Part shown: piece by piece, positions 24,204-62,892 of the stretch | Layout: each line of letters begins with the position of its first letter | Position numbering within the stretch: the stretch's first letter is position 1 | From: Spiribacter salilacus | GTDB taxonomy: Bacteria; Pseudomonadota; Gammaproteobacteria; Nitrococcales; Nitrococcaceae | Reading direction: 5' to 3' | Assembly (NCBI RefSeq): GCF_009649225.1 | Contig: NZ_WJPP01000003.1 | Span: 248,001-312,000, forward strand | DNA length: 64,000 nucleotides | Notes under the pieces: generated by a model | Databases searched by the model: none | Told to the model about the DNA's origin: nothing | What the model saw: the letters and a program-made list of their open reading frames with translations, nothing else | Made by a program: the position numbers and the translations under genes

Positions 24204-25661
24204 TTGCAATTGGGTAGCCCAATTTCGCTTAGTGTCGTGATCCTCGCCGCTGGCGAGGGCAAGCGCATGCGCTCTGCCACCCCCAAAGTCCTCCACCCTA
24301 TCGCCGGCAAACCCATGCTCGCGCACGTCCTCTCGGCCGCCACGGCCCTCAAGGGCCCCAACCCGGACATCCACAACTTGGACATCCACATTGTCTATGG
24401 CCACGCCGGCGACCAAGTGCGCGCTGCGATGGGTGTCTCGGACGCTGCGGTGGGTGTCTCGGATATGGTTGAATGGAAAAACGTGCCCGTTAATTGGGTT
24501 CACCAAGCTGAGCAGCTCGGTACCGGGCACGCGGTGGCGCAAGCCCTGCCCGGCATCCCGGACACCCACACCGTTTTGGTGCTTTGCGCTGATGTTCCAT
24601 TAATTACCCCAGGCACACTCACGCGCCTCATCAACGCAGCTAATCCCAATGGCGCCCTTTTGACCGTCTGCCTCGAAAACCCGCATGGCTATGGTCGAGT
24701 GATCCGAGACACCCACAGTTCTGTAAGAGGTATCGTCGAAGAAAAGGACGCAACGGAAGCTCAGCGCCAAATGAAAGAGATCAACACGGGGGTTATGTGT
24801 TTACCAGCTAGCTCGCTGAAAACGTGGCTGTCTCAGTTAGATACAGATAATGCACAGGGCGAGTATTACTTGACCGACTGTGTGGCGATGGCGCACCAAG
24901 AAGGAAAGGCGCTTTCCTCTGTGTGCATCACCGATCCCGTTGAAGTTCAGGGGGTTAATGATAGAGCTCAGTTGGCTTTAGTCGAGCGGGCTTACCAAAG
25001 ACGTCAAGCTGAAAGCCTGATGCGAGAACACGGCCTTGCTTTAGCTGACCCTAACCGCTTCGACTTGCGAGGCCACCTAAGCGTTGGCAAAGACTGCTTT
25101 GTCGATGTTGATGTCATCATCGAAGGGAACGTCACACTGGGCGATGGAGTCCGCATTGGGCCTTTCTGCCGTATCCAAGACACCCACATTGATTCTGCAA
25201 GCCAAATCCACGCCCATTGCGATATCCAAGACACCCACATCTCTAGCAACTGCAGTGTTGGGCCGTTCGCCCGCCTAAGACCTGGCACCAAGCTGGATCA
25301 GAACGCACGAATAGGTAACTTTGTAGAAACCAAGAAAGTGACTGTGGGGGAAGGAAGTAAGATTAATCACTTGTCATATATCGGTGACGCTACGTTAGGT
25401 GTGGGTGTCAATGTTGGTGCTGGCACCATTACCTGCAACTATGATGGTAAGCGCAAGTATGACACCCACATTGATGATCACGCGTTCATTGGATCCAACA
25501 CCGCGCTCGTTGCACCGATTACTATTGGTAAGAGAGCTACCATTGGGGCTGGCAGCACACTGCGAGAAAGCGTACCACCTGATACGCTGGCGGTAGGGAA
25601 CAAAGACACCCACCTTGTCCATAACTGGCGTGCCCGTTCCAAACCTTCAAAATCGGATTAG
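24204..25661 (+). CDS. glmU: Bifunctional UDP-GlcNAc pyrophosphorylase / GlcN-1-P acetyltransferase
   Basis: Makes UDP-GlcNAc for peptidoglycan and LPS. The N-terminal uridyltransferase has LAAGEGKRMRS (residues ~15-25), QLGTGHA and CADVPLI. The C-terminal left-handed beta-helix acetyltransferase has GPFARLRPGTKL, GNFVETKK and VNVGAGTITCNYDG. The start is probably TTG at 24204. At 485 residues it is about 30 longer than the E. coli protein (456). The extra residues lie partly at repeated-word sites: DIHNL-DIHIV (15-base repeat at 24366/24381) and MGVSDAA-VGVSDMV (21-base repeat at 24430/24451). Eight exact word copies occur here, five giving Asp-Thr-His within or next to the beta-helix. Catalytic motifs look intact. 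Confidence 0.95.
   Translation: MQLGSPISLSVVILAAGEGKRMRSATPKVLHPIAGKPMLAHVLSAATALKGPNPDIHNLDIHIVYGHAGDQVRAAMGVSDAAVGVSDMVEWKNVPVNWVHQAEQLGTGHAVAQALPGIPDTHTVLVLCADVPLITPGTLTRLINAANPNGALLTVCLENPHGYGRVIRDTHSSVRGIVEEKDATEAQRQMKEINTGVMCLPASSLKTWLSQLDTDNAQGEYYLTDCVAMAHQEGKALSSVCITDPVEVQGVNDRAQLALVERAYQRRQAESLMREHGLALADPNRFDLRGHLSVGKDCFVDVDVIIEGNVTLGDGVRIGPFCRIQDTHIDSASQIHAHCDIQDTHISSNCSVGPFARLRPGTKLDQNARIGNFVETKKVTVGEGSKINHLSYIGDATLGVGVNVGAGTITCNYDGKRKYDTHIDDHAFIGSNTALVAPITIGKRATIGAGSTLRESVPPDTLAVGNKDTHLVHNWRARSKPSKSD
24366..25613 (+). repeat. Repeated-word cluster in glmU (8 exact, 3 near copies)
   Basis: Exact copies at 24450, 24561, 24708, 25179, 25230, 25401, 25461 and 25605; near copies at 24366 and 24381 (GACATCCAC) and 24430 (TGGGTGTC). 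The 24366/24381 pair has a 15-base period and the 24430/24451 pair a 21-base period, both in frame. This is the densest cluster in the window. Confidence 0.92.
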
Positions 25662-25692
25662 GGCTTGCAAATAGCCACCAGGAGATAGACGG

Positions 25693-27534
25693 ATGTGCGG
25701 AATTGTTGGGGCAGTAGCGCAACGGGACGTCTCGGCGATCCTCATGGAAGGGCTGCGTCGGCTCGAATACCGGGGCTACGATTCGGCCGGTATGGTCATC
25801 CTAGACACCCACAGCAAAGCCCCCAAGCTCAAGCGTCACCGTGCCGTTGGCAAGGTCGCTATGCTAGATGAGGCGCAGCGAGCAGATCCGTTAGCTGGTG
25901 GAGTCGGTATCGCTCATACGCGCTGGGCTACGCATGGAGCGCCGACTGAGGAAAACGCTCATCCACACATGGCTCTCGATCAAGTTGCGATTGTTCACAA
26001 CGGCATAATTGAAAATCACGCGGCGATTAGAGAGCGGCTTGAAGCGAAGGGCTATGTTTTTTCATCACAGACAGACACCGAATCTGTGGTGAATGCTATC
26101 CATGAGCGCCTAGACCACGGCGATCAACTGCTTGATGCCGTTCGTCATGTTGTTTGTGAGTTAGATGGAGCCTATGCGTTAGGCGTCGTTAGTCAAAACG
26201 AGCCAGATCGAATTGTTGCTGCGCGTTTGGGTAGCCCGCTGGTTATTGGTATTGGTATTGGCGAGCACTTTATTGCGTCTGATGTGGCCGCTTTACTGCC
26301 AGTCACACGTGATTTCATTTACCTTGAAGAAGGTGATATTGCGGAGATCTGCCGTGATCACCTCACCATCTATGCCGCAAATGGCGACAAAGTTACGCGT
26401 CCAGTAAAAACGACGGAGCTTTCCGCCGATGCGGCTGATCGAGGTGAATTTCGCCACTTTATGGCTAAAGAAATTCATGAACAACCTCGCGCAGTCGCAG
26501 AAACACTTGAGGCGCGCGTTAGTGAACAACGCGTTCTCCCGCAGGCTTTTGGCCCTGAAGCGACCGCCGTGCTCTCAAAAACGCAGCGTATTCAAATTGT
26601 TGCTTGCGGTACTAGCTTTCATGCTGGCATGGTGGCGCGGTATTGGTTTGAGAGCCTAGCCGGGCTGCCCTGCGACATAGAGGTTGCCAGCGAGTTTCGT
26701 TACCGTCCTCACGTGGTCGCAGACGGGACTTTGTTTGTGACGCTGTCGCAGTCGGGTGAAACAGCAGACACCCTGGCCGCGCTCAGAGAGGCCAAGCAAA
26801 TGGGCTACTTGGCTACTCTGGCCATTTGCAACGTACCAGAAAGCTCACTTGTGAGGGAATCCGATCTTGCGATGATGACGCGAGCGGGGCCGGAAATCGG
26901 CGTGGCCTCCACAAAAGCGTTTGTTACACAGCTTGTCGCGCTCATGATTACTGTGATTGCCGCAGGTCGATTTCATGCCCTGCCAGAATCTATGGAAAGA
27001 CGCCTAGTTGAGGCACTACGACATTTGCCTCGTCAAATTGAGGAAGTCTTGAGTTTAGAGCCCCAGATCAAAACGCTGGCAGAGCAATTTATTGACAAGC
27101 ACCACAGCCTATTTCTTGGCCGCGGTATGCAATACCCAATCGCAATGGAAGGCGCGTTAAAACTCAAAGAAATCTCTTATATTCACGCTGAAGCCTACCC
27201 GGCCGGCGAGCTCAAACACGGTCCTTTGGCCTTGGTGGACTCAGAGATGCCGGTCATAGCCGTTGCGCCAAACGATGACCTCGTCGAAAAACTGCGCTCC
27301 AACCTTCATGAGGTCCAAGCCCGCGGCGGCCGTCTCATCATCTTTGCCGATCATGCGGTGCCTTTTGAACAAGACCAAGACACCCACGTTATTGTCATCC
27401 CTCCCATAGACGATTTAATCAGCCCTATTCTCTATACCGTACCGCTGCAGCTTCTTGCTTATCATGTGGCGGTTCTGAAGGGCACAGATGTTGATCAACC
27501 CCGTAACCTCGCTAAATCTGTGACGGTGGAGTGA
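25693..27534 (+). CDS. glmS: Glutamine--fructose-6-phosphate aminotransferase (isomerizing)
   Basis: Forms glucosamine-6-phosphate, the first step to UDP-GlcNAc; 613 residues. The N-terminal glutaminase has catalytic Cys2 (MCGIVGAV) and RWATHG. Two SIS isomerase domains follow, with [10 protein letters not shown] and [11 protein letters not shown]. The C-terminal end is [13 protein letters not shown]. An AGGAGA ribosome binding site precedes the ATG. It is 31 bases downstream of glmU. Two exact repeated words occur (25804 LDTHSK and 27379 QDTHVI), both replacing variable residues. Confidence 0.97.
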
Positions 27535-28871
27535 GTGAAGTAACGCCAGTTACCCAGACACCCACGGCATCTACAGTATCTGCCTTAGCCGGGGTCTCCC
27601 TTTTACTGACAATTGTCATGGGTGCGGTTGGCATGCTGACTCAATGGGTGTCTTTGATGCCTGCGGGTGTTTTTGCCTGGGTGGCGGGTATTCTTCTTTG
27701 GCCTACGGTTGCTCGACAGTCGAAAATCCAAGTGACTGTCCTTTTAGGCGTTGGATTTAGCTTGATTGGATGGGTTGTAGCCCGGGGCGGTACAATACCA
27801 TGGCAGCTTCTCATTAAAGGGAACGCCGGGCTGATAGCAATGTTGGCAGCTGTAAGTTTTTTGCAGCTAGCAGGGGCATCCAGCGCAACAGAAACCCAGG
27901 TTTATCCGCGTGGTCGGCGCGCTCTATGGCAAACCCTACTGGGCGTGCACTTCGTTGGTGCTGTCATCAATTTATCCACCGTTTTTATCATGGCAAGAGC
28001 GCTAGCTTTAAAAGGCCACCTTGAGCACCGCCACTATATTTCATTATCCAGGCTGTTTGGGGCGGCCGCTTTCTGGTCGCCCTTTTTTGCCTCAATGGCT
28101 GCGGCCCTGATTTATGCGCCGGGAGCTAAGCTGACCTCGCTAATACTCTTCGGACTGCCACTAGCCGCGATTAGCCTTTTGCTGACCGTTCACGATGTTA
28201 GCGCTGTGGGTGTCAAAGATTTCAGGGGCTACCCGGTTAGCGTCTCTAGCCTATGGATGCCGGGGTTTCTGGCAATATTTATTCTCTCTGTGCACGCAAT
28301 AGACTCGAATATCTCAATTCTTGGGCTCATTGCGGCTTTAGTGCCAGCGGTCTGCGTAGCAGTCATTTTTTTGCGTGGTTTTAAAGGAAATAAAGAAACC
28401 GAGACACCCACACCACTCAGAACACTCCATCGCCACATCACTATTAATCTGCCCAAAATGAGCCCTGAGTTGTCGTTATTTCTTGGCGCTGGCGTGATGG
28501 CTGCCGGAATCGCAACCGTGGTTACAGAATTTGAACTGGGGTTTCCTGTTTCAAATTTTGGAGGCTTAGAAGCCGCGCTGTTACTGACTACACTCGTATT
28601 GGCCTCAATGGTGGGTGTCCATCCAATTATCGGCGTTGCAGCCGCTTCCCCCATTATTTTGCCTATTGGGCCTGATCCGAGTTTGCTTGCTTCCACGTTC
28701 TTAGCCGCATGGGGTATTGGGGTGGCGGCCAGCCCTCTGTCGGGAATGAATTTGGCGCTGCAGGGCAGCTTTTCTATGAGGATGTCCGATATTCTGCGCT
28801 GGAATGGACGGTATGCAGTCTTAATGGTGCTTGCCGCCGGGTTCCTACTGCAACTGCACCCAGCGGCCTAA
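27531..28871 (+). CDS. Multi-pass membrane protein, possible ion-transporter-superfamily carrier
   Basis: A 446-residue protein with about 11-12 hydrophobic segments and short loops, starting with GTG that overlaps the glmS stop (GTGA). No family is recognised with certainty. The segment [23 protein letters not shown] followed by [25 protein letters not shown] has the Gly/Pro-rich re-entrant look of ion-transporter (IT) superfamily carriers such as DASS or ArsB-like proteins; this is inference and the substrate is unknown. It has four exact repeated-word copies (27557, 28206, 28403, 28611). The coupled start suggests co-expression with glmS. Confidence 0.6.
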
Positions 28872-28900
28872 ACATTTCATTTTACTACGGAACCCGTAAT

Positions 28901-29641
28901 TTAAGATTTACCGGCTGTAAAACCACCATCTGCGAGTAAATCAGCACCTGTGATGAAGCTGGCTTCGTCACTCAACAGGAATGTTGCGGCATTAGCAATT
29001 TCATGTGGTTCGCCTAGCCGACCGATAGGGTGCAGGGTTTGTAAAAAGTCGAGGGTTTCTTTGTCTAAAGCTTCAAGAATGGGGGTTCTTACATAACCAG
29101 GTGAGACACTATTTACCCTAATTCCGTCTCCTGCATGCTCGATGGCGAGCGTTCTGGTCAAATTAAGGACCGCACCTTTAGTCGCGCTGTAGGCTGCTGT
29201 CTGAGACTGTCCAAAATGACCCAAAATAGAGGCGCAATTCACAATGCTGCCGCTGCCTTGTTGTTTCATTCTCGCAAGTGCGGCACGGGCAATTTTAAAT
29301 ACCCCTGTTAGGTTAATATCGACAACGCGTTGCCAGTCATCGTCTTTATAGTCGATTGCCGAGCACACAGCACCAATACCGGCATTATTAAACACGCCAT
29401 CCACGCCACAGAATTGCTCAGTTAAGTTAAATAGCTCGTCAACTGAACCGGTGTCAGTGACATCTGTTGAGCAGAATCGCACAAACTCTTTGCCAATTTC
29501 TTGCTCAAGTAGACGACCTTTGGTGTCGTCGATATCGGCAATAACAACCTTCGCTCCGTCGCGCACAAGGCGCCTGACCGTTGCTTCACCGATACCGCTA
29601 GCGCCGCCAGTTACAACCACGCCTTTCTCATCAAATCTCAT
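28901..29641 (-). CDS. Short-chain dehydrogenase/reductase (SDR)
   Basis: A 246-residue classical SDR oxidoreductase. The NAD(P)-binding motif TGGASGIGEA is at residues ~11-20, DVTD near 62, NNAGIG near 86, the catalytic Ser in NCASILGHFG near 140 and YSATK near 154. Asp at the end of the second strand (IADIDD) suggests NAD preference. The substrate cannot be inferred. It is the last gene of a probable minus-strand operon SRPBCC - LOV - SDR (11-base gap to the LOV gene). An AGAGG ribosome binding site precedes the ATG. No repeated-word copies. Confidence 0.85.
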   Translation of the reverse strand: MRFDEKGVVVTGGASGIGEATVRRLVRDGAKVVIADIDDTKGRLLEQEIGKEFVRFCSTDVTDTGSVDELFNLTEQFCGVDGVFNNAGIGAVCSAIDYKDDDWQRVVDINLTGVFKIARAALARMKQQGSGSIVNCASILGHFGQSQTAAYSATKGAVLNLTRTLAIEHAGDGIRVNSVSPGYVRTPILEALDKETLDFLQTLHPIGRLGEPHEIANAATFLLSDEASFITGADLLADGGFTAGKS

Positions 29642-29652
29642 ATAACCCTCTG

Positions 29653-30129
29653 TTATCTATCCGATAATTTCTTTTCCGACTTGGAGCCTTGATCCAATAG
29701 GATCGACATTCTCTCGGCTTCACGCTGAGCCGTGATTAAGTCGGTCACATCATATTGGGCACCCAAGTAGTAAAGGAGGTTCCCTTGTGAATCACGCAGC
29801 GGCTGAATCGTAAGTTGGTTATAAAAAAGTTCGCCATTTTTCTTGTAATTACGAAGCAGCACTTTGGTATCGCTATGGTTTTTAAGTGCTTCACGAATCT
29901 CCTCAAGGCCTTCCTGGTCGCGATCATCACCATGTAAAAAGCGACAATTTCGACCAATGATCTCGTCGAGGTCATATCCGGTCATTTCACAAAAAACACC
30001 GTTTGCGAAAACGATAGGATTATCTGGCTGCTCAGGATCTGAGAGCGTTATTCCATTAACACAGGTATCAAGAATTTGAGTGAGAACACTCGGGATGATG
30101 CAAGGGTCTTTTTCTGGATTAAACTGCAT
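29653..30129 (-). CDS. Short LOV-domain blue-light photoreceptor
   Basis: A 158-residue protein made of one PAS/LOV domain plus a short C-terminal helix (QREAERMSILLDQGSKS). The photoactive signature GRNCRFLHG includes the flavin-adduct cysteine at about residue 62. FMN-contacting residues are visible in NYKKNGELFYNQ and in the Gln of GAQYDVT. No output domain is fused, as in the short LOV proteins of Pseudomonas. Its place between SRPBCC-family and SDR genes suggests light-linked regulation of that small operon, which is inference. A GGAG ribosome binding site lies 8 bases before the ATG. Confidence 0.85.
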   Translation of the reverse strand: MQFNPEKDPCIIPSVLTQILDTCVNGITLSDPEQPDNPIVFANGVFCEMTGYDLDEIIGRNCRFLHGDDRDQEGLEEIREALKNHSDTKVLLRNYKKNGELFYNQLTIQPLRDSQGNLLYYLGAQYDVTDLITAQREAERMSILLDQGSKSEKKLSDR

Positions 30130-30173
30130 TTTTTAGGCTCCATTCTTGCCTACTAAAGTCGCTGCCTGTCCAA

Positions 30174-30650
30174 TTAGCGAGGTTCATGTGGAACCTCTGA
30201 TTCGATCAGGCCCTTAATATTTCGAGTAACACGCGTCACCCCTTCTTGGACGGCATACCGAATAAGCTTTTCGAAAGGCTTAAACGCAAAGCCGAGTTTG
30301 CCAAGCTCAAAAGAGAAGATTAAGGTCGTGCCGGCGTCGGCGGTGCTATCTAAGCTGAAATCAATAAAGTAAGGATCTTTTATACCGCGAAACGCCACAC
30401 GCGAGGGTGGGCTAATATCTACCACTTCAAAGTCAGTTTGTGTCCGCCGTCCTTGATCAACGCGAACTTGACGTGCACGCCAGCCAAGTCGCATCGGCCC
30501 AGCTGACAGCGCCTCAAGCCGCTTAACCTCTGGTGACCAGCGCGGGTAATTGACTAAAAAATCATCAACAATGAACGAATAGACCAACGTTGGTGGCCGG
30601 TCGATATCAATGCTTGCGCTAGTTTTAACCACTTTTGCAACCTCTTGCAT
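30174..30650 (-). CDS. SRPBCC-family (START-like) protein, polyketide cyclase/dehydrase type
   Basis: About 158 residues from the ATG at 30650; the frame is open further upstream but that part has no family look and would overlap the divergent gene. The helix-grip pattern SASIDIDRPPTLVYSFIVDD, YPRWSPEVKRLEAL, GTTLIFSFELGKLG and a long C-terminal helix are typical of SRPBCC proteins, which hold a hydrophobic ligand in a deep cavity. The function is not known. The stop lies 44 bases before the LOV gene. An inverted repeat at 30179-30197 overlaps its last codons. Confidence 0.65.
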   Translation of the reverse strand: MQEVAKVVKTSASIDIDRPPTLVYSFIVDDFLVNYPRWSPEVKRLEALSAGPMRLGWRARQVRVDQGRRTQTDFEVVDISPPSRVAFRGIKDPYFIDFSLDSTADAGTTLIFSFELGKLGFAFKPFEKLIRYAVQEGVTRVTRNIKGLIESEVPHEPR

Positions 30651-30732
30651 GGTGAGAGGTGGTCTTAAAGAGTTTCCTAGACATCCACAGTACTTATGCC
30701 GCACCTTAACCTGAACTACAGCCAAGGTGAAG

Positions 30733-31251
30733 ATGATCATGAACAAGTTGCTGATTCACTTCTGCACAATTTTTGTGTTTCTGGGTTGTTTGGGAGTAAG
30801 TGTGGATGTCCGGGCTTCTGGTCCTGCCGAACAAGTGGTCTACGCCCAGCTCGAGGCGCTCCAGCGGTGGGATGGAAGGGGGGTTGACGAGGCATTAAGG
30901 GAGGTTTGGGACCGAGCCCATCCCGAAAATCAAAAAATGACGGGGCCGATTGATCGATTTGCGCGACTGCTAACCGCACCAGGCTATCAGCCACTAATCG
31001 GCCATCAGACACACGAAGTCGTTCCGTTTGAGCGAAATCGCAGCGACAAGGGTGATGCCGGGATAGCTACCTTTTCTGTGATCGTGCTTGCGACGGATGG
31101 CCTACTTTATGGGTTTGTTTGGCAGCTTGGTCGTGTTGAATTGCCAGACGGAAAGGCATGGATGACCCTGAGTGTATCGCCAGCAAGATCAACAGGAAAG
31201 CAGCTCTCCAAGGTATTTATGCCGATGAAAAAAGCTGTTTCCCTGCGCTAA
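30733..31251 (+). CDS. Exported DUF4864-like protein
   Basis: About 172 residues. A signal peptide is evident (MNKLLIHFCTIFVFLGCLGVSVDVRASG, cut near Ala-Ser-Gly). The body starts AEQVVYAQLEALQRWD and has the size and YGFVWQLGRVELPDGKAWMT pattern of DUF4864 proteins, whose function is unknown. Starts at 30727 (GTG), 30733 and 30739 (ATG) are possible; 30733 has AAGG 5 bases upstream. It is divergent from the SRPBCC gene and overlaps the transposase gene by 35 bases tail to tail. Confidence 0.6.
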   Translation: MIMNKLLIHFCTIFVFLGCLGVSVDVRASGPAEQVVYAQLEALQRWDGRGVDEALREVWDRAHPENQKMTGPIDRFARLLTAPGYQPLIGHQTHEVVPFERNRSDKGDAGIATFSVIVLATDGLLYGFVWQLGRVELPDGKAWMTLSVSPARSTGKQLSKVFMPMKKAVSLR

Positions 31252-32218: not shown

Positions 32219-32332
32219 CAGATTCCTCCTGTACGCTGGTCATTGAAATGATGGTGCTTAGACGCTATCTAGCCTGCATAAAAATTATTGCGAAAGATGT
32301 GATCTACATCCCAAAAAAAGGGTGAGCTACTT

Positions 32333-33019: not shown

Positions 33020-33043
33020 ACGTCTATTAAACGCTATTAAACC

Positions 33044-33090
33044 CACATGGTGGTGGCGCCATATGAAGCACCACCACCGTGTGCAAGATT
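33044..33090 (+). terminator. Hairpin terminator between the FAH gene and ohr
   Basis: Arms 33044-33056 (CACATGGTGGTGG) and 33071-33083 (CCACCACCGTGTG) pair over 13 positions with one G-T wobble and a 14-base loop. A short T-run (TTTTT) follows a few bases later on the plus strand. It sits between convergent genes. The T-run is not immediately adjacent, so strength is uncertain. Confidence 0.6.
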
Positions 33091-33100
33091 GGTTTTTAAA

Positions 33101-35369: not shown

Positions 35370-35370
35370 A

Positions 35371-36923: not shown

Positions 36924-36959
36924 AGTGTTGGTGCTCCCCGATTAAATAGGTTGCCGAGA

Positions 36960-54153: not shown

Positions 54154-54164
54154 AAGGAGGTCGT

Positions 54165-55916: not shown

Positions 55917-56807
55917 CTAGCGTTCATTGATCGGGAAGTCGGCGGTTAGATTGGCCCAGCGCCAATTTGGATCACCGATGGCGATAAAGTCTGGATTAAG
56001 GACAGACACTTTTTGGTTATAAGTCAGCGGCGATCCATCCATGCGCTGCACCGCGCCGCCAGCAGCTTCCAATACGGCCTGAGCAGCAGCGCTATCCCAT
56101 TCAGAGGTTGGCCCGAAGCGCGGGTATGCGTCGGCTGCACCCTCGGCAACGAGGCAGAACTTTAGCGAGCTGCCCATCGAAGTGGTATCAACGTCGGGGA
56201 GCTGCTCTAAAAGCGCCTGAACCGCGGGGCTGCCATGTGAGCGACTGACTGCCAACGTCAGCGCCGCCTCACTAGCGGTGCGTGTCCGAATTTCTTGGTA
56301 ACTGGACTGCCCACTTACCTCGTCGATGCGCCAGGCCCCGGGTTTGCCATCGGAGATTCCATCCAAGACACCCACATAACTCCGGCGCAAAACCGGCGCA
56401 TGCACCACGCCCAAAACCGGACGGCCATTCGAAATCAGAGCGATATTGACTGTGAACTCGCCATTGCGCTTAACAAATTCTCGTGTGCCATCAAGCGGAT
56501 CCACCAACCAGTAGCGGCCCCAGGTTTTACGTACGTCGAAATCGGCCAATCCGCCTTCCTCAGAGAGTAACGGCAAGGCGGCCAAGCTTGCCTCGGAAAC
56601 TGTGGGTGTCTCAGATCCGTTAGATCCGATCTTAGATCCCAATTCAGAGGCAATTAGCCGATGCGCAGCCATATCCGCTGCGGTCAGTGGTGAGTGGTCG
56701 GATTTGGTCTCAACGGCAAAGTCGCCCTCGTAAATTGCTAAGATCGCATCACCGGCTTGGCGCGCGATTGTGAGGACTTCTTCGGCTAACTTGGGGGGCG
56801 TAGACAT
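55917..56807 (-). CDS. cysQ: 3'(2'),5'-bisphosphate nucleotidase CysQ
   Basis: About 296 residues from the ATG at 56807, which has a GGAGT ribosome binding site. It is a Li+-sensitive phosphatase that removes phosphate from PAP/PAPS in sulfur assimilation. Metal-site motifs are LLSEEGG, WLVDPLDGTREF and EWDSAAAQAVLEAAGG. Compared with E. coli CysQ there are two extra in-frame segments at repeated-word sites: about 15 residues around GSNGSETPTVSEASL (56602) and about 8 around YVGVLDGISDG (56367). It is tail to tail with phaC with no bases between the stops. Confidence 0.9.
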   Translation of the reverse strand: MSTPPKLAEEVLTIARQAGDAILAIYEGDFAVETKSDHSPLTAADMAAHRLIASELGSKIGSNGSETPTVSEASLAALPLLSEEGGLADFDVRKTWGRYWLVDPLDGTREFVKRNGEFTVNIALISNGRPVLGVVHAPVLRRSYVGVLDGISDGKPGAWRIDEVSGQSSYQEIRTRTASEAALTLAVSRSHGSPAVQALLEQLPDVDTTSMGSSLKFCLVAEGAADAYPRFGPTSEWDSAAAQAVLEAAGGAVQRMDGSPLTYNQKVSVLNPDFIAIGDPNWRWANLTADFPINER

Positions 56808-56996
56808 AACTTCACTCCTTTTGGATATGATCGCATGGTCAGGAAAAGTTGACACGCTCGCGGGCTCCGGCTAACCTCCGTCCCATCGTGCTTAAAAGCG
56901 CATCCCTTCTGTTTAACTCAATTAGATTATCGCCGGGCACAAAGGGCGGTTATCCACCCGAGCCCTCATTTGTTTGCATTCCCTGGAGGTTTATTC

Positions 56997-57323
56997 GTGA
57001 GCGACCAAATCGTCCACGTCTCTGACGCTGAATTCGAGGCAGAGGTACTGAAATCCGAGCATCCTGTTTTAGTTGATTATTGGGCTGAATGGTGTGGTCC
57101 TTGCAAAATGATCGCCCCAATCCTTGACGAGATGGCTGCTACCTACAGCGGCAAGCTCAAAGTGGCAAAGCTGAATATCGATGAAAATCCGGAAACCCCA
57201 CCGAAATACGGCATTCGGGGCATTCCAACTCTCATGTTGTTCAAGAATGGTGCAGTTGAGGCCACCAAGGTCGGTGCACTCTCGAAAGCCCAGCTTTCGG
57301 CATTTATTGACAGCAATCTTTAA
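56997..57323 (+). CDS. trxA: Thioredoxin 1
   Basis: A 108-residue thioredoxin with active site WCGPCK (Cys33 and Cys36) and the cis-Pro loop [14 protein letters not shown]. The GTG at 56997 after GGAGG is chosen because it gives the standard [10 protein letters not shown]-terminus; the upstream ATG frame would add ten hydrophobic residues. It is immediately upstream of rho, as in many gammaproteobacteria. No repeated-word copies. Confidence 0.97.
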
Positions 57324-57356
57324 ATTTATCGCCCGCTGCGGCGGCCAGAAGAAAAA

Positions 57357-58613
57357 ATGAATCTCACCGAACTTAAGTACAAGCCAGCCGCTGAGCTGGT
57401 CGAAATCGCGCAGTCCTTTGGCATCGAGAACATGGCGCGATCGCGCAAACAAGATGTCATATTTGCTTTACTAAAAGCTCACGCCAAAAAAGGCGAAGAT
57501 ATTTGGGGTGACGGCGTCCTAGAAATCTTGCAAGACGGCTTTGGCTTTTTGCGTTCCGCAACCAGCTCTTATATGGCAGGGCCAGACGACATCTATGTCT
57601 CCCCCAGTCAAATTAGACGCTTTAGTTTGCGGACCGGCGACACCATTTCGGGCAAGATCCGGCCGCCAAAAGAGGGCGAGCGGTACTTTGCGCTGCTTAA
57701 AGTTGATGAGATCAACTTCGAAAAGCCCGAAGCCGCCAAGCATAAGGTTTTGTTTGAAAACCTCACGCCGCTATTTCCTAAAGAAAGGCTGGTACTGGAA
57801 CGCGGCAACGGGTCAACTGAAGACCTGACTGCGCGGGTCATCGATTTGTCTGCCCCTATTGGTAAGGGACAGCGGGCGTTAATCGTCTCGCCGCCTAAAG
57901 CAGGTAAGACGATGTTGCTGCAGAACATCGCGCAGTCCATCACGGCGAACAACCCCGAAGCATACGTCATCGTGCTGCTCATCGATGAGCGGCCAGAAGA
58001 GGTGACCGAGATGCAGCGAACGGTTCGCGGCGAAGTGGTTTCCTCCACCTTTGACGAGCCCGCTAACCGCCATGTGCAGGTTGCCGAAATGGTCATCGAA
58101 AAAGCCAAGCGGCTTGTTGAGCATAAGCGCGATGTGGTGATCATGCTCGATTCCATTACGCGTTTGGCGCGGGCCTACAACACGGTTGTACCGAGCTCCG
58201 GCAAGGTTCTCACCGGTGGTGTGGATGCCAACGCCCTGCACCGGCCAAAGCGCTTTTTTGGCGCGGCGCGAAACATCGAAGAAGGTGGAAGTCTTACGAT
58301 CATCGCCACGGCGCTCGTCGAAACAGGCTCCCGCATGGACGATGTCATTTACGAAGAATTCAAGGGTACCGGCAATATGGAAGTCCATCTTGACCGCCGC
58401 ATTGCAGAAAAGCGGATTTACCCGGCGATGAACATCAACCGCTCCGGCACGCGTCGCGAAGAGCTGCTAATGAGCCAAGAAGATCTGCAAAAAGTTTGGA
58501 TCTTACGCAAACTCCTCCACCCGATGGACGAGCTTGCCGCCATTGAATTCCTGTTGGATAAGCTAAAAGACACCAAAACCAACGACGAATTCTTCCAGGC
58601 AATGAAGCGCTAG
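57357..58613 (+). CDS. rho: Transcription termination factor Rho
   Basis: A 418-residue hexameric RNA helicase. The N-terminal helical domain begins [22 protein letters not shown]. The RNA-binding GFGFLRS and [10 protein letters not shown] form the primary site. Walker A is [14 protein letters not shown] near residue 180, and Walker B is [16 protein letters not shown] near 260. The Q-loop and R-loop regions ([20 protein letters not shown]) are intact. Length equals the E. coli protein within one residue. No repeated-word copies. Confidence 0.98.
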
Positions 58614-58640
58614 ATCATTATCGCTGTTAGCGGCGTTGGC

Positions 58641-59192
58641 TTATTGCGGGCGCCGCCGCCTCCATGTCTCAAAATTCATGTCATACGCATGCTCGGCATC
58701 CGCCGGGTGATGCGTTTGCGACGCCAATTCCCACTCCGGCCCTTCAAATAGCGGAAAAAACGTATCGCCCTCCACCATGGCGAGCACCCGCGTCAACTCA
58801 ATTCGATCTGCTATCGGCAAAAAGGCCGCATAAATCTCAGCGCCGCCGATGATCGCGATCTCGGGTAACTCATCCGAGACACCCACACTTTTCTCTGTCG
58901 ACTTCGCTGCTTGCGTGGCGGCTGCTAGTGCGCCCTCGACATCGTGGACAGCCACACAACCTTCTGCTGTCCAGTGGGTGTCTCGGGTCATCACGATATT
59001 GGTGCGATTCGGCAGTGGCCGGCCGATCGATTCATAGTTCTTACGGCCCATCACGATCGGCTTCCCCCGCGTTAACGCCACGAAATGTCGCATGTCATCG
59101 GGCAAGCGCCAGGGCAAGTCATTATTGCGCCCGATCACGCGGTTCTCGGCCATCGCCACGACCAAAATAATGTGGGTGTCTCGGTTTTGCAT
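58641..59192 (-). CDS. folA: Dihydrofolate reductase
   Basis: A 183-residue DHFR producing tetrahydrofolate. The ATG at 59192 is chosen because the ATG at 59201 directly abuts the GGAG site, whereas this one is 9 bases from it. Family motifs are VVAMAENRVIGRNNDLPWRLPDDM, VMGRKNYESIGRPLPNRTNIV and IIGGAEIYAAFLP. It exceeds E. coli DHFR (159) by about 24 residues. Three repeated words lie in it: residues 4-7 (RDTH, 59172), MTRDTHWTAEG (58974) and an inserted SVGVSDE (58878). It runs in the lgt-thyA-folA minus-strand group. Confidence 0.93.
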   Translation of the reverse strand: MQNRDTHIILVVAMAENRVIGRNNDLPWRLPDDMRHFVALTRGKPIVMGRKNYESIGRPLPNRTNIVMTRDTHWTAEGCVAVHDVEGALAAATQAAKSTEKSVGVSDELPEIAIIGGAEIYAAFLPIADRIELTRVLAMVEGDTFFPLFEGPEWELASQTHHPADAEHAYDMNFETWRRRRPQ

Positions 59193-59304
59193 GATGCTCA
59201 TCTCCTTACCCTTAAACCGCTACCGGCGCTGGGATGTGCGGGTGCGATTGATAGCCGTCGATGTGGATGTCTTCGTATCGAAAGGCGAACAAATCGTGGG
59301 TGTC
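58878..59304. repeat. Repeated-word cluster in folA and thyA (4 exact copies)
   Basis: Copies at 58878 (plus) and 58974, 59172 and 59296 (minus), within 430 bases. Both orientations occur inside folA, read as Val-Gly-Val in one and Asp-Thr-His in the other two. Confidence 0.92.
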
Positions 59305-60006
59305 TGGGTTGAGTCGCAGCTGTGGCAGAGGCAGTGGGCTGCGGGATAGTTGGGTGTCCGCTTGTTCAAGATGGTTCAGGTATAAATGCGCATCGCCCAG
59401 GGTGTGAATGAACTCGCCGGGTTTTAGGCCGGTTACCTGAGCGACCATGTGGGTGAGGAGCGCATAAGAGGCAATGTTAAACGGGACACCCAAAAATATG
59501 TCTGCGCTACGCTGATAAAGCTGACAGGATAAGCGCCCCTCGGCGACATAAAATTGGAATAAAATGTGGCAGGGCGGCAGCCCCATTTTGTCGACCTCAC
59601 CGGGGTTCCAGGCGGTGACCAGATGGCGTCGTGAGTTCGGCGTTTGACGGATTTGCTCAACCACTTTGGCGATTTGGTCGATGCGCTGGCCATTGGGTGC
59701 AGGCCAAGAGCGCCATTGCACACCGTAAATAGGGCCGAGTTCACCATTCTCATCGGCCCATTCATCCCAAATGCTGACGCCATTTTCTTTCAGATAGCGG
59801 ATATTGCTCTCGCCTGCCAAAAACCAAAGTAGCTCATGGATGATGGAGCGGAAATGCAGCTTTTTAGTTGTCACCGCCGGAAAGCCGGTATTCAAATCGA
59901 AGCGCATCTGCCAGCCAAAGCAGGACAAGGTGCCTGTCCCCGTACGGTCACTTTTTTCAACTCCATGATCGCGAACATGGCGCAGCAGGTCTAGGTACTG
60001 TTGCAT
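59212..60006 (-). CDS. thyA: Thymidylate synthase
   Basis: A 264-residue enzyme making dTMP from dUMP. It has [22 protein letters not shown] near residue 20, the catalytic Cys in [12 protein letters not shown] near 146, and [20 protein letters not shown]. Length equals the E. coli enzyme. One exact repeated word (59296) encodes PDTHDLFAF near the C-terminus, at the position of E. coli KPESIFDYRF-like residues; near matches are at 59263, 59351 and 59485. It lies directly upstream of folA (10-base gap), as expected for the folate cycle. Confidence 0.97.
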
Positions 60007-60039
60007 GAGTCAGCCGTATCCTCTTTTTGTCAGTTAGTT

Positions 60040-60048
60040 GTGGGTGTC
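60040..60048 (-). repeat. Intergenic copy of the repeated word between lgt and thyA
   Basis: GTGGGTGTCCGGTATT, complement of ATACCGGACACCCAC, lies in the 72-base gap between the lgt stop and the thyA start. Confidence 0.9.
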
Positions 60049-60078
60049 CGGTATTGCCTTCTGGTCGCGCCTAGGGGC

Positions 60079-60870
60079 CTAGCGATTTTCGTGGCCCCGT
60101 TTGTAGCTCCAGAACAATAATCCAACCCCAATTAAAATCATCGGTAGCGAAAGTAGCTGCCCCATGGTTAGCCAGCCTCCCGCTAAATAACCAATGTGAG
60201 GGTCTGGCAAACGCACAAACTCTACGCTAAAGCGGGCGACGCCGTAGCCAGCTAAAAACAGGCCGGTTACGCTGCCCGCGGGTCTTGGGCGACTAGAAAA
60301 CCACCAAACCACTGCGAATAGGAGCAGCCCTTCTAGGGCCATTTGATAGAGCTGTGAGGCATGCCGCGGATCGGGCCCCATTGGCGGGAAAACCATTCCC
60401 CAGGGCATTGAAGTTGGCGCACCCCAAAGCTCGCCATTAATAAAGTTGCCTAAACGCCCGGCTGCCAGCCCCGGCGGAATGAGTGGCGCAATGAAATCCC
60501 CGAGCGCTAAAGGACGAATCTTATGACGACGGGCGAACACCCACGCCATAACGATGACACCCACCAACCCGCCATGAAATGCCATACCGCCCTCCCAAAT
60601 GCGTAGCAGCGCGAGGGGGTCAGAAAGTATGGGTGTCTCGGAATAGAAAATTGCATAACCCATGCGCCCGCCAACCACGACGCCGATGGCGCCATAAAGC
60701 AGCAGGTCATCAACGCGTGCGGGCGTCAGCGGACTGCCAGGCTGACGTGCCCGAAGCCGCCCCAGCCACCATGCCAGGCCAAAGCCGATTGCATACATCA
60801 GCCCATACCAATAAATCTCGAGCGGGCCGAGAGAAATCGCAACGGGATCAATATTTGGATAAGTAAGCAT
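60079..60870 (-). CDS. lgt: Prolipoprotein diacylglyceryl transferase
   Basis: A 263-residue inner-membrane enzyme with about seven helices that adds diacylglycerol to the lipobox cysteine of lipoproteins. The signature [13 protein letters not shown] is near residue 136. The essential His is in [12 protein letters not shown] near residue 95, and [12 protein letters not shown] is near the N-terminus. One exact repeated word (60556, LVGVIVM) follows the His-Gly motif. It is the first gene of the lgt-thyA-folA group. Confidence 0.95.
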
Positions 60871-60894
60871 ACGATTATTGTGATGGAAAAAACT

Positions 60895-60903
60895 GTGGGT
60901 GTC
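60895..60903 (-). repeat. Intergenic copy of the repeated word between lgt and the SH3-domain gene
   Basis: TGTGGGTGTCTCATATT lies in the 85-base divergent region between the lgt start and the SH3-domain gene. It is the only exact copy in a divergent promoter region. Confidence 0.9.
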
Positions 60904-60955
60904 TCATATTCGTCGCTTCGGCTAAACTGCGGTTTTTATTAGGAGATTGAAGACG

Positions 60956-61627
60956 ATGCCAAAGATGGCTCCGGTTTTGGTGCTATCACTTGCGATTGGA
61001 CTTGGCGCAGCAGCCGGCTTCGGCACGGCCCAGGCGCAGACAGCGGCGTATGTGACGGATAACCTAGAAATTACCCTTCGCTCTGGCCAGGGCAATGACT
61101 ATCGGATTCTACGTATGCTGAGCGCTGGCACGGAACTACAAGTCCTTGAGCGCGGCTCAGAGTGGACACGGGTGCAGGCGGGCAATCAGCAAGGATGGGT
61201 GCGTAGCGCTTATCTGCAAGAACAGCCGGCAGCAGTGACACGGCTTGAGCGGGCTAGCGAGCGTTTGGCCACGGTATCTGAGCAAAATCAATCTCTAATG
61301 GCCACCGTAGAAGAGCTGGAAAGCACGGTGGAAGCGCTCACCGAGCACGCACGAGGGCTTGAGCAGGACAACCATCGCATGCAGCTTCGGCTACAAGAAG
61401 CGACCGAGGGCTTGCAGCTTGCTGATGAAAATCAGGCGTTGCGCAAAGACCTCATCGATCTTGAGCGTGAGGCGCAGGATTTGCGACAAGAGGTAGTCCG
61501 TATGGCCGATCGTTCCCGCCAAGATTGGTTCATTGCGGGTGCGGCCGTAATTGCAGCTGGCATGCTCATTGGCATCTTAATGACCCGTATTCGCTGGCGA
61601 CGTCGCAGCAGCTGGAGCGATCTGTAA
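60956..61627 (+). CDS. Exported SH3-domain protein with C-terminal membrane anchor (TIGR04211/YgiM-like)
   Basis: About 223 residues. A signal peptide (MAPVLVLSLAIGLGAAAGFGTAQAQ) is followed by a bacterial SH3 domain (ITLRSGQGNDYRILRMLSAGTELQVLE, QQGWVRSAYL). A long coiled coil (~85-180) and a C-terminal helix (WFIAGAAVIAAGMLIGILM) with a basic tail follow. This is the layout of the TIGR04211/YgiM family, probably bound to peptidoglycan or the envelope; its exact role is unknown. The start is ATG at 60956 (AGGAG 10 bases upstream) or TTG at 60947. Confidence 0.85.
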   Translation: MPKMAPVLVLSLAIGLGAAAGFGTAQAQTAAYVTDNLEITLRSGQGNDYRILRMLSAGTELQVLERGSEWTRVQAGNQQGWVRSAYLQEQPAAVTRLERASERLATVSEQNQSLMATVEELESTVEALTEHARGLEQDNHRMQLRLQEATEGLQLADENQALRKDLIDLEREAQDLRQEVVRMADRSRQDWFIAGAAVIAAGMLIGILMTRIRWRRRSSWSDL

Positions 61628-62892
61628 TGGAAGATCTCGCACGCCTGGTGCGCTGGTTTCGCCACAGCTCACCGTTCATTCATGCTCATCGTGGCCGCAC
61701 CTTTGTGGTGCACTTTGGCGGCGAAGCGCTGCTCGATCCCGCCTCTCGCGGGCTGGTGCATGATTTGGCTTTGCTCAGTGGCTTGGGTGTCCGCTTAGTA
61801 CTCGTCCCCGGCGCCCGCCCTCAAATCGAACAGCGACTAGCGGCAAGTGGCGCGGCGATTGATTATGTTAATGGCCTACGCATAACAGACACCCACGCTT
61901 TAACCTGCGTTTGCGATGCCGTTGGTAGCGTTCGCTTGGAGCTTGAAGCCCTGCTCTCTATGAGCCTGGCGAACTCGCCGATGGCTGGGCTGCGCTTGCA
62001 GGCGGCCTCAGGGAACTTTGTGACGGCTCGACCCTTGGGTGTCTGCGATGGCGTTGACTACCTTCACACCGGCGAGGTCCGCCGCATCGATGCCGCGGCA
62101 ATTCATGGGCGATTGGATGACGGGGCGGTTGTGTTGGTGAGTCCTGTGGGTGTCTCACCAACCGGCGAGCAATTCAATCTCTACGCCGAAGACGTGGCTG
62201 TCTCAGTTGCACGTGCCCTCCAGGCCGACAAACTCTTGTTCTTGCACGAAGGCCCGGCACTGGAGCATAGCGAGCTGACGGTGGAGGAGGCGGCGCGCAT
62301 CCAAGACACCCACATCCAACGCGCCGTCCAGGCTTGTCGCGGCGGCGTGGCGAGGGTGCATTTGGTGCCAAGGGCAGAAGATGGTGCGCTGCTGGGTGAG
62401 TTATTCACGCGGGATGGAGTCGGTACGTTAATTACGCCGCAACCGTTTGAGCAGCTCAGGGCGGCAAGGGCGGAGGATATTAGCGGGATTTTGGCGTTGA
62501 TTGAGCCGCTTGAGGCGGACGGCACGCTTATTCGGCGTACGCGTGATCGCATCGAAAGCGAGCTTGATCAGTTTATGGTGATGGAGCGCGAGGGCACCGT
62601 GGTGGCCTGTGCCGCGCTGCAGCCGGTCTCAGATTCCAAGCTTGCCGAAGTGGCCTGTCTGACGGTGCATCCCGATTATCAGCGCGGCGCACGAGGACAA
62701 AAACTTCTGCAGCAGCTGGAGCAAAAGGCCCGAGCGCAAGGCTGCGAAAACTTATTTGTGCTGACGACGCGTACCGCGCATTGGTTTAGAGAGCAGGGGT
62801 TTGAACCTGGCGAATTAAGCGACCTGCCAGAAAGTCGTCAAGCCGGATACGAGCCCTCGCGCGGCTCCAAGCTGCTCTTCAAGCCGCTCTAA
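61627..62892 (+). CDS. argA: Amino-acid N-acetyltransferase (N-acetylglutamate synthase)
   Basis: A 421-residue enzyme for the first step of arginine synthesis. The amino acid kinase-like domain (residues ~18-290) starts FIHAHRGRTFVVHFGGEAL, with LVLVPGARPQIEQRL and VVLVSPVGVSPTGEQFNL. The GNAT domain (~295-421) has VACLTVHPDYQRGARGQKLL and ENLFVLTTRTAHWFREQGF. Its ATG overlaps the stop of the SH3-domain gene. Three exact repeated words occur (61888, 62146, 62305), all in the kinase-like domain. It converges with the Bax-like gene. Confidence 0.95.
   Translation: MEDLARLVRWFRHSSPFIHAHRGRTFVVHFGGEALLDPASRGLVHDLALLSGLGVRLVLVPGARPQIEQRLAASGAAIDYVNGLRITDTHALTCVCDAVGSVRLELEALLSMSLANSPMAGLRLQAASGNFVTARPLGVCDGVDYLHTGEVRRIDAAAIHGRLDDGAVVLVSPVGVSPTGEQFNLYAEDVAVSVARALQADKLLFLHEGPALEHSELTVEEAARIQDTHIQRAVQACRGGVARVHLVPRAEDGALLGELFTRDGVGTLITPQPFEQLRAARAEDISGILALIEPLEADGTLIRRTRDRIESELDQFMVMEREGTVVACAALQPVSDSKLAEVACLTVHPDYQRGARGQKLLQQLEQKARAQGCENLFVLTTRTAHWFREQGFEPGELSDLPESRQAGYEPSRGSKLLFKPL

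What the first reader, a model, noticed from the sequence alone, without database searches (positions are those of the whole stretch)
24450..62313. A dispersed non-palindromic 9-10 bp word (AGACACCCAC) about 100-fold over-represented
Seen: 55 exact GACACCCAC/GTGGGTGTC in 64 kb against about 0.5 expected for a random 9-mer. A precedes it in 43 of 55, giving a context near TCC(A/G)AGACACCCACA. It occurs on both strands (35/20), 51 times inside genes in three frames on either strand, so selection acts on DNA rather than peptide. Known: dense, strand-indifferent short words are typical of DNA uptake sequences (about 1 per kb in Neisseria and Haemophilus); those words are ATGCCGTCTGAA and AAGTGCGGT, and this is neither. 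Inference: a new uptake-sequence dialect, or a recognition site for another genome-wide protein (methylase, recombination or nucleoid factor).
Basis: partly seen in the sequence, partly recalled or inferred. Interest (0 to 1): 0.93.

Follow-up and report, generated by a model that had tools for sequence, protein, structure and literature searches.

The report
Local word field around domesticated transposase
Short identical DNA words pepper the genes around a tamed transposase gene, are spelled differently in each species, are kept in place by evolution, and are absent where that transposase is missing, which points to a protein-and-word pair whose job is still unknown.

Summary
The word is real: 56 exact GACACCCAC in the window against 0.36 expected. 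It is not genome-wide: 71 of 110 copies lie in one 47-kb stretch (window 24450-71758); the other 39 equal the reversed-letter control, 40. So it is no uptake sequence. Inside lies a 333-aa HUH/Y1 protein gene (31217-32218, minus) that fits TnpA-Y1 subclass 2.3, RAYT relatives reported to lack cognate repeats. Across the genus (Spiribacter or near), words follow this gene: all 12 full-length copies read have a local word; five syntenic regions without it have none. The second gene locus was predicted, then found, to have its own section. Spelling differs by species, but words share homologous codons (122 pair-places against 0.6 expected), are conserved, and avoid the gene itself (0 against 15.4 expected). 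Best reading: recognition sites of the linked ssDNA nuclease, kept by selection through linkage to its gene; what the sites do (transfer, recombination, mobilisation) is inferred. Against: two loci of a same-family genome and most distant homologues (60 of 79) show no such word.

The parts
31217..32218 (-). TnpA-Y1 / RAYT-like HUH endonuclease gene, 333 aa (here called gene A), the gene that the words go with; no word inside it
   Evidence: Pfam Y1_Tnp E 4e-4, below its cut-off; NCBIfam REP_Tyr_transpos 2e-10, below its cut-off; N70-H71-F72-H73 and Y183-V-D-L-N-P; best PDB fold match 4er8 RAYT-REP complex, E 1.9e-3
24450..64000 (.). Word field: 53 of its 71 exact GACACCCAC copies lie in the window; it continues to window-equivalent 71758
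24204..25661 (+). glmU, left edge of the field, 8 words
25693..27534 (+). glmS-like (SIS + GATase), 2 words inside
41163..43886 (+). polA, 4 words; one position is a word in three species, each in its own spelling
54081..55916 (+). phaC-like gene, 5 words
24450..24458 (-). word
24561..24569 (+). word
24708..24716 (+). word
25179..25187 (+). word (homologous word or near-word in G003-G006)
25230..25238 (+). word (homologous word or near-word in G003-G006)
25401..25409 (-). word
25461..25469 (+). word
25605..25613 (+). word
25804..25812 (+). word
27379..27387 (+). word
27557..27565 (+). word
28206..28214 (-). word
28403..28411 (+). word
28611..28619 (-). word
32603..32611 (-). word
32710..32718 (-). 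word
33707..33715 (+). word
34541..34549 (-). word
35361..35369 (+). word
35596..35604 (+). word
35980..35988 (+). word
36166..36174 (-). word
37427..37435 (+). word
37469..37477 (+). word
38042..38050 (-). word
41949..41957 (+). word
42036..42044 (+). word
42201..42209 (-). word
43767..43775 (+). word in polA (homologous word in G003 and G005, other spelling)
44519..44527 (+). word
48859..48867 (-). word
49168..49176 (+). word
52329..52337 (+). word
52888..52896 (-). word
53406..53414 (+). word
53656..53664 (+). word
54711..54719 (+). word
54843..54851 (+). word
55684..55692 (+). word
55767..55775 (+). word
55867..55875 (+). word
56367..56375 (+). word
56602..56610 (-). word
58878..58886 (+). 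word
58974..58982 (-). word
59172..59180 (-). word
59296..59304 (-). word
60040..60048 (-). word
60556..60564 (+). word
60895..60903 (-). word
61888..61896 (+). word
62146..62154 (-). word
62305..62313 (+). word

Best explanation
The words are recognition sites of the HUH/Y1 single-strand DNA nuclease encoded in their midst (TnpA-Y1 subclass 2.3). Each copy of the gene has its own local field of some 25-90 sites spread over roughly 25-80 kb, mostly inside ordinary genes but not inside the nuclease gene itself. Sites arise mainly by point substitution where the encoded tripeptide is tolerated, and selection then keeps them. When the protein's preference drifts, the sites are re-spelled one by one at the same places. 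Because fields follow the gene rather than a chromosomal place, the benefit of a site must depend on linkage to the gene. The likeliest reason is that sites raise the chance that a segment carrying the intact gene is nicked around, copied, transferred or kept during recombination, so the field works as a linked, selfish (or half-tamed) transfer or recombination enhancer. Shown: locality, gene-field association, conservation, homologous positions, species spelling, avoidance of the gene. Inferred: direct recognition by the protein (about 0.85). Inferred and weak: the linked transfer/recombination advantage (about 0.4).
For: Locality: 71 of 110 copies in 47 kb, the rest at control level; in G005 26 of 27 GGACAGACAC lie in 1846-1881 kb, around its gene copy, and in G006 31 of 41 GGACACCCAC in 1678-1724 kb. 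Gene-field link: in the syntenic region A the gene is present in G003-G006 as in G000 and absent from G001, G002, G009, G012, G013; only the former hold a word. Prediction met: the second locus of the gene (G001, G002, G009, G011, G012, G013, and copy 2 in G000) has its own section, GGGACAGGCAC or AGGACAGGCAC. The second locus is syntenic between G000 and the others. Homologous places: 122 shared near-word pair-places over the ten pairs of the five A genomes against 0.59 expected, spelled in each genome's dialect. Conservation: the share of identical words exceeds that of permuted-letter controls in 16 of 16 directed genome comparisons, e.g. G001 to G012 23 of 27 against 26 of 162. Avoidance: no word inside the gene in 12 of 12 copies, 15.4 expected from the density within 10 kb; 0 of 20000 draws of same-size windows were empty in all 12. 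Relics: genomes without gene A share 27 near-word pair-places among themselves and 22 with A genomes (0.02 and 0.21 expected). HUH histidines and Tyr invariant in 29 homologues; fold matches a RAYT best.
Against: No binding or nicking was tested. G008 holds the words but no gene was found in it (74% complete, 240 contigs). Two homologue loci in the same-family genome G018 have no word (one copy has a stop inside, the other locus was read for 10 kb only). Of 79 homologue loci only 19 pass 1e-4 for a local word, two of them from this genus, and the GGACAnnCA core leads in 11 of 76. Of 66 words, 23 touch a gap column in some and 16 in most word-less relatives, against 3.8% (most) of background 9-mers, so some may have come by insertion. 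Mismatches per site are not lower than the control in one of 16 comparisons (G013 to G012, 0.151 against 0.111, three words badly aligned). Field A is lopsided (-7 to +40 kb), which simple distance decay does not explain. A redoxin-like gene (window-equivalent 69433-69960) was also found in G005 and G006 and not in the word-less regions; G003 and G004 were not read that far, so this gene is not excluded for field A alone. No step of transfer or drive was observed.
Confidence: 0.6

Rival explanations
1. Cis-limited word writing: the Y1 protein itself copies or pastes short word sequences near its gene, as RAYTs are thought to do with REPs, and homogenises them; no selection on single sites is needed.
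For: REPs of some canonical RAYTs also pile up near the gene, within 200 kb (PMC2817692 section 8). 16 of 66 words lie in columns gapped in most word-less relatives. In distant Lysobacterales words can stand in tight arrays.
Against: 50 of 66 words lie in columns not gapped in most relatives. Words keep homologous places over large divergence. A copying process would not respect codon context (33 DTH, 16 VGV) or spare the gene itself unless filtered.
Confidence: 0.22
2. Host-useful regional device: the protein and words serve a cell function such as fork restart, recombination or local chromosome organisation, and locality reflects a cis-acting protein.
For: Strong conservation of sites; field A lies near dnaA and parAB.
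Against: The second field lies elsewhere (about 132 kb from the parS-like pair in G012 and G002), and regions without the gene have no word. The parS-like sites are present in all 19 genomes searched.
Confidence: 0.15
3. Genome-wide DNA uptake sequence of a new dialect.
For: Dense, both strands, species dialects as in Neisseriaceae (abstract of PMC3630211); ComEC present in the genome.
Against: Not genome-wide: 39 copies outside against 40 for the control. Field presence follows the Y1 gene.
Confidence: 0.01
4. Artefact: peptide repeats, horizontal import of a block, or a chimeric assembly.
For: DTH and VGV recur.
Against: The block is syntenic core chromosome; words lie in many unrelated genes, both strands; the same pattern with other letters recurs in the single-contig genomes G005 and G006.
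Confidence: 0.01

Closest known systems
REPtron: RAYT/TnpA-REP with cognate REP repeats (PMC2817692, PMC6006769, PMC8266576)
   Same: HUH/Y1 protein with its own repeat family, one family per gene copy, coevolution of the pair, repeats close to the gene on both sides (nearest word 26-583 bp to one side, 186-2923 bp to the other in ten copies), and in some genomes accumulation of repeats around the gene
   Different: Here the repeat is a 10-16 nt non-palindromic word; six words folded as ssDNA gave no stable hairpin. Words lie mostly inside genes, mostly in columns without gaps, and keep homologous places; the nearest pair is in inverted orientation in only 2 of 10 copies (G005, G006)
TnpA-Y1 subclass 2.3 (PMC6006769 sections 17 and 22)
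   Same: Length, NH[FY]H, WE and YVDLNP motifs, long C-terminal tail, Chromatiales among the hosts, several divergent copies
   Different: The paper reports no REP-like sequence for this subclass; here a cognate word field is found for the members in this genus
DNA uptake sequences and their dialects in Neisseriaceae (PMC3630211, abstract)
   Same: Short non-palindromic word, both strands, species dialects changing in concert
   Different: Thousands of copies per genome there; confined to one gene's neighbourhood here, and tied to a nuclease gene rather than to a pilin receptor (ComP, named in the abstract listing of PMC3868556)
TIRYT / TIRtron (PMC3733652 section 16)
   Same: Y1 proteins without GTAG REPs; shared TIR motif GGGGWSAS resembles GGGACAG and GGGACAC
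   Different: TIRs are described as inverted repeats flanking the gene; in G000 only weak inverted repeats were found at gene A, and an inverted nearest word pair is seen in 2 of 10 copies

Membership tests
DNA uptake sequence (DUS/USS) | Genome-wide over-representation | tested here: not met
   71 of 110 copies in 47 kb; the other 39 against 40 control
DNA uptake sequence (DUS/USS) | Word improves uptake or transformation | not testable with these tools
   needs an experiment; only ComEC presence seen
DNA uptake sequence (DUS/USS) | Pilus receptor for the word (ComP-like) | not tested
   no search for ComP or pilins was made
TnpA-Y1 subclass 2.3 | HuH motif NHYH, W-E motif, YVDLNP | tested here: met
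   NHFH (F for Y), FWEGR, YVDLNP in the window protein; H71, H73, Y183, N187, P188 invariant in 29; definition
TnpA-Y1 subclass 2.3 | About 325 aa with long C-terminal tail | tested here: met
   333 aa; helices to residue 329 in the model, pLDDT 86.8
TnpA-Y1 subclass 2.3 | Placement in the published subclass tree or HMM | not tested
   the paper's HMMs were not at hand
TnpA-Y1 subclass 2.3 | No REP-like flanking structures | tested here: met
   only weak inverted repeats within about 0.5 kb of gene A (G000 only)
REPtron (RAYT + REP) | Repeat is a 20-40 nt palindrome with a GT[AG]G foot | tested here: not met
   10-16 nt word; 5 of 6 words folded give 0 kcal/mol, one -0.4
REPtron (RAYT + REP) | Repeats extragenic | tested here: not met
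   66 of 71 in ORFs
REPtron (RAYT + REP) | Gene flanked by two repeats in inverted orientation | tested here: inconclusive
   nearest words on the two sides are inverted in 2 of 10 copies (G005, G006) and in the same orientation in G000 A, G003, G004, G000 copy 2, G002, G009, G001; in G012 + on the left, - on the right at 2923 and 437 bp, in the other relative order
REPtron (RAYT + REP) | Repeat family specific to the gene copy | tested here: met
   two gene copies, two words in G000
REPtron (RAYT + REP) | Protein cleaves its repeat | not testable with these tools
   needs in vitro assay
Chi/KOPS-type polar genome word | Genome-wide with replication-linked strand bias | tested here: not met
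   not genome-wide; 51 of 71 plus-strand within the field only
ParB/parS substitute | Replaces parS near oriC | tested here: not met
   parS-like sites (at most 1 mismatch) present in all 19 genomes searched, including word-positive ones

The most novel reading that the evidence does not exclude
A linkage-confined word field: an HUH nuclease gene that has recoded tens of kilobases of its neighbours' genes with its own recognition words while sparing itself, keeps them under selection, and re-spells them in concert, so that core chromosome around the gene acts as one extended selfish recombination or transfer unit without fixed ends.
Probability: 0.35. Interest if true: 0.95.

Novelty: new variant of a known kind. 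Interest (0 to 1): 0.87.

Why it matters
Subclass 2.3 RAYT relatives have had no known substrate: the 2018 survey found no associated repeats (PMC6006769 sections 12 and 22). The word fields supply candidate substrates, several species-specific protein-word pairs for reading a recognition code, and genomes in which the gene and its field are missing together. If the linkage reading holds, a single gene shapes the sequence of dozens of unrelated neighbouring housekeeping genes, including glmU and polA, across species.

Tried and rejected
Uptake sequence: rejected on the genome-wide count. ParS substitute: rejected, parS-like sites present. Imported block or chimera: rejected by synteny. Replication strand rule: the field has 51 plus to 20 minus, but field B words point mostly the other way relative to the ori side in G012 and G002 (parS places), so no rule was kept; this was reasoned, not tested statistically. 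Universal core GGACAnnCA around all homologues: not supported, 11 of 76 loci against 1 of 27 controls (the one is L203, which adjoins the B field of G009). Classical TIRs around gene A: not found in G000. Defence annotation: no PADLOC match for the gene or two neighbours. PDB sequence search with profile A2: no hit up to E 0.01. Spiribacter genome paper PMC3832224: a term search for competence, pili, transposase, recombination and transformation found nothing; the text itself was not read.

Rows dropped or partial: the word test covers the 79 loci (that tool kept the best 80 of 167); its correction is for words within a locus, not for the number of loci. One search left out 3 loci under 5 kb. 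Contigs of the fragmented genomes G004 and G008 were chosen for reading because they held words (or genes of the region), so their densities are not unbiased. Region A of G010 and G011 was not read; of G007 only 17.8 kb; of G013 35.9 kb; of G003 40 kb. For G011 and G013 only one side of locus B was read. A weak partial Y1 match in G005 (C1:1805641-1805877, E 2.8e-7) and the Y1 matches of G014, G016, G019-G022 were not followed; of G018 two loci were read (L209, 10 kb; L210, 20 kb). L120 could not be searched genome-wide (not held). The host tree is midpoint-rooted with one weak node (0.713), and two inner gene-A nodes are weak (0.216, 0.236), so 'gene A is ancestral and was lost' rests on synteny and relic positions more than on the tree. 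G010 and G011 are not in the host tree.
Full report
OBSERVATION. The window holds 56 exact GACACCCAC (35 plus, 21 minus); 100 dinucleotide shuffles gave a mean of 0.36 and a maximum of 2. The 10-mer AGACACCCAC occurs 44 times against 0.07 expected from a second-order Markov model. The consensus of the field is A[TA]CC[GA]AGACACCCACA with a weak T-rich tail. The window is C12:248001-312000 of an 18-contig, 2.235-Mb genome (G000). That genome has 110 exact words (77 forward, 33 reverse) and 40 matches of the reversed-letter control. The words continue past the window for 7.8 kb, with 18 more, and then stop: 0 in 332-352 kb and 1 in 228-248 kb. So 71 lie in C12:272450-319758 and 39 elsewhere, which is background.

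THE PLACE. The stretch is ordinary core chromosome. To its left lie dnaA, a ParA-type gene, parB and an ATP synthase gene cluster (gamma subunit tested; the other subunits recalled from gene order). The field begins in glmU and runs through glmS-like, znu-like transport, uvrD, polA, an engB-like GTPase, resB/ccsB, dsbA, phaC, cysQ, rho, folA, thyA, lgt and argA-type genes, up to a phosphoglucomutase-type gene (several gene names are recalled from the domain hits). Orthologues of glmU, polA and rho lie within about 25-30 kb of each other in the complete genomes of the genus. No call names the window's own species.

OTHER SPECIES, OTHER WORDS, SAME REGION. Reading the syntenic region in relatives gave a surprise. 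G008 has the same word. G006 has TGGACACCCAC (51 TGGGTGTCC), G005 GGACAGACAC (35 GGACAGACA), G003 TGGACAGGCAC (49 GGACAGGCA). G004 has both TGGACAGGCAC and GACACCCAC. The regions read in G001, G002, G009, G012, G013 and a 17.8-kb part of G007 show no such word (lowest corrected log10 P among these control loci and two G000 blocks -2.8). For G004 and G008, which are fragmented, the contigs were chosen partly because they held words. All spellings fit GGACAnnCAC or AGACAnnCAC. Comparing gene content, one ORF was present in G003, G004, G005 and G006 and absent from G001, G002, G009, G012 and G013: window 31217-32218, minus strand, 333 aa, 50-55% identical. A redoxin-like gene at window-equivalent 69433-69960 shares that pattern as far as the data reach (found in G005, G006; G003 and G004 not read there).

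THE GENE. It has weak matches below cut-off to Pfam Y1_Tnp and NCBIfam REP-associated tyrosine transposase. N-H-F-H and Y-V-D-L-N-P are invariant in five copies from the genus; H71, H73 and Y183 are invariant in 29 homologues. The predicted fold (pLDDT 86.8, pTM 0.90) has the RAYT-REP complex 4er8 as best PDB match at E 1.9e-3, probability 1.00, TM by target 0.57, rmsd 11.6; no match has E under 0.001, rank 2 is unrelated, and ranks 3-14 are all IS200/IS605-type transposases. By length, motifs, host group and divergent multiple copies it fits TnpA-Y1 subclass 2.3 of Quentin et al. (PMC6006769; I read the abstract, sections 12, 17, 22, 31 and search passages). That paper states that neither automatic nor manual searches found REP-like sequences for subclasses 2.1 and 2.3.

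A PREDICTION AND ITS TEST. A family-wide search (23 genomes, 18 with a match) showed a second locus of the gene: a second copy in G000 (C12:88408-89373, 46% identical), and copies in G001, G002, G009, G011, G012 and G013. Region A of five of these six had been read and had neither gene nor word; that of G011 was not read. If words belong to the gene, the second locus should have fields of its own. It does. GGGACAGGCAC is enriched around all six (best 10-mers, corrected log10 P from -11.6 to -44.4). In the neighbouring 20-kb blocks it is weak (L195 -7.0, L204 -3.0) or not significant (L197, L198, L200, L201, L203, L206). G000 copy 2 has AGGACAGGCAC, with 15, 10, 23 and 6 GGACAGGCA per 20 kb over C12:48-128 kb. 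The second locus is syntenic between G000 and G001, G002, G009, G012. Two homologue loci in G018 gave no word. Genome-wide counts of GGACAGGCAC agree: G012 37, of which 31 in 1869-1905 kb; G009 26, of which 24 in 1557-1595 kb; G001 42, of which 31 in 112-147 kb; G002 39; G000 62; G006 0, G005 5, G007 1, G010 0, G017 6. In G005, 26 of 27 GGACAGACAC lie in 1846-1881 kb; in G006, 31 of 41 GGACACCCAC lie in 1678-1724 kb. In short: both genes and both fields (G000); gene A and field A (G003-G006, no full-length second copy found); gene B and field B (six genomes); no gene found in G007 and G010 (84% and 86% complete), with 0-2 copies of each of the two patterns counted. G008 is word-positive without a detected gene, but is 74% complete in 240 contigs.

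HOW THE WORDS LIVE. 66 of 71 field-A words lie in main ORFs. They read DTH (33), VGV (16) or sense frame 2 (13), with 4 in other frames. 50 of 66 sit in columns not gapped in most word-less relatives, so they look like substitutions; 16 sit in columns gapped in most (23 in at least one; background 3.8% for most). Word-less orthologues match the word at 54% of letters against 66% for background 9-mers. GlmU shows this directly. Field A runs from about -7 kb (-14.5 kb in G004, -2.5 kb in G005) to about +40 kb in G000 and G006 and +32 kb in G005; G003 and G004 were not read to an end. Most B words lie within about 13 kb either side; G000 copy 2 within about 39 kb either side, close to the limit of what was read. 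Copies are related, so the 12 are not independent.

CONSERVATION AND CONCERTED RE-SPELLING. In 16 of 16 directed genome comparisons the share of identical words exceeds that of permuted-letter controls: G000 to G008 (17% divergence) 15 of 18 against 17 of 76; G001 to G012 (23%) 23 of 27 against 26 of 162; G001 to G002 24 of 26 against 38 of 181; weakest G012 to G009 12 of 22 against 14 of 142, and G009 to G011 7 of 10 against 18 of 56. Mismatches per site are lower than the control in 15 of 16; the exception is G013 to G012, 0.151 against 0.111, where three of 14 words are badly aligned. Across dialects the places are shared although the letters differ: polA has ATCCAAGACACCCACG in G000, GTAGTGGACAGGCACG in G003 and GTAGAGGACAGACACA in G005 at one codon-aligned site. 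Counting near-words of any dialect in region A, the ten A-A pairs share 122 pair-places (0.59 expected), the 25 A-B pairs 22 (0.21), and the ten B-B pairs 27 (0.02) (one place counts once per pair). The last two look like decayed relics of a field whose gene was lost. In field B, G000 and the B genomes share 3-6 places per pair (0.02-0.03 expected); of the five shown for G012, four have A in G000 against G in G012 before the core. The expectation assumes random placement in the ORF and ignores protein conservation, so it overstates the contrast somewhat; the changing letters at fixed places do not depend on it.

BEYOND THE GENUS. 79 loci around homologues were tested; 19 have a local word at corrected P under 1e-4, two of them G003 and G004; none of 21 control loci does (lowest 10^-2.8). 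In 12 of the 19 the best 8-, 9- or 10-mer contains GGACACCC, GACACCCA or GACAGGCA (my count). The generic core leads in 11 of 76 loci against 1 of 27 controls. In four other genomes the word GGGACACCCA shows clusters, some as tight arrays, and in Lysobacterales words are often spaced under 60 bp and partly between genes, more like REPs. The intragenic, conserved field is shown only for this genus.

MECHANISM. Shown: field and gene go together, one dialect per gene copy, sites conserved and re-spelled in concert, the gene itself spared. Inferred with good support: the Y1 protein recognises the word, since it is the one gene that tracks both loci and its family is known to coevolve with cognate ssDNA repeats (PMC8266576: abstract and section 29 seen). 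Inferred with weak support: why sites pay. Locality around the gene wherever it sits means the advantage is linked to the gene or the protein acts in cis. I favour a linked transfer or recombination advantage: sites as nick or capture points on ssDNA that help segments carrying the uncut gene to be copied or kept, for instance in transformation (ComEC is present, which is common and proves little). Sparing of the gene fits this, though protein constraint could also cause it. Rivals are cis-limited word writing and a host-useful regional function.

PRIOR ART. Local piling up of palindromic REPs near some rayt genes (three marine gammaproteobacteria and Thauera) is in print (PMC2817692, passages and section 8), as is the one-gene, one-repeat rule (PMC6006769 section 12). 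Di Nocera and others describe TIRYTs whose TIR motif GGGGWSAS recalls these words (PMC3733652, passages and section 16; authors' names partly recalled). In the searches made I saw, in the listings and the passages opened, no report of intragenic, non-palindromic words for this subclass or of such words in Spiribacter; preprints and most subscription papers are not in that library.

Noticed in passing
G000:C12:11277-245391 (outside the field): The first 16 listed scattered GACACCCAC copies on this contig are all on the plus strand, although their number is near background; unexplained strand bias.
   Followed up: no
window 24204: Field A stops sharply at glmU in G000 (no field words in the 24 kb to the left, ATP synthase side). 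The first word is in or at glmU also in G003, G004 and G006, although the distance to the gene differs, but only 1-3 kb further left was read there; in G005 the first exact word is 2.5 kb from the gene.
   Followed up: partly
window 27531-28871: 446-aa protein between the glmS-like gene and an SDR gene with no Pfam or NCBIfam match and orthologues in most relatives compared.
   Followed up: no
window 24204-25661: GlmU is longer here (485 aa) than in word-less relatives (456-463), with in-frame additions of which some contain words; G003 has another large addition.
   Followed up: partly
window 5462 and 6074: Two parS-like sites, each one letter off TGTTnCACGTGnAACA, 612 bp apart; a similar pair occurs in the 19 genomes searched, 612-627 bp apart where both lie on one contig.
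   Followed up: no
L096-L101 (G004): G004 carries two spellings at once (GGACAGGCAC and GACACCCAC) in one field, perhaps a dialect in transition.
   Followed up: partly
L146 (Lysobacterales MAG): Strong local word CTACGACGCC (13 copies against 0.2) near a homologue, of quite different type.
   Followed up: no
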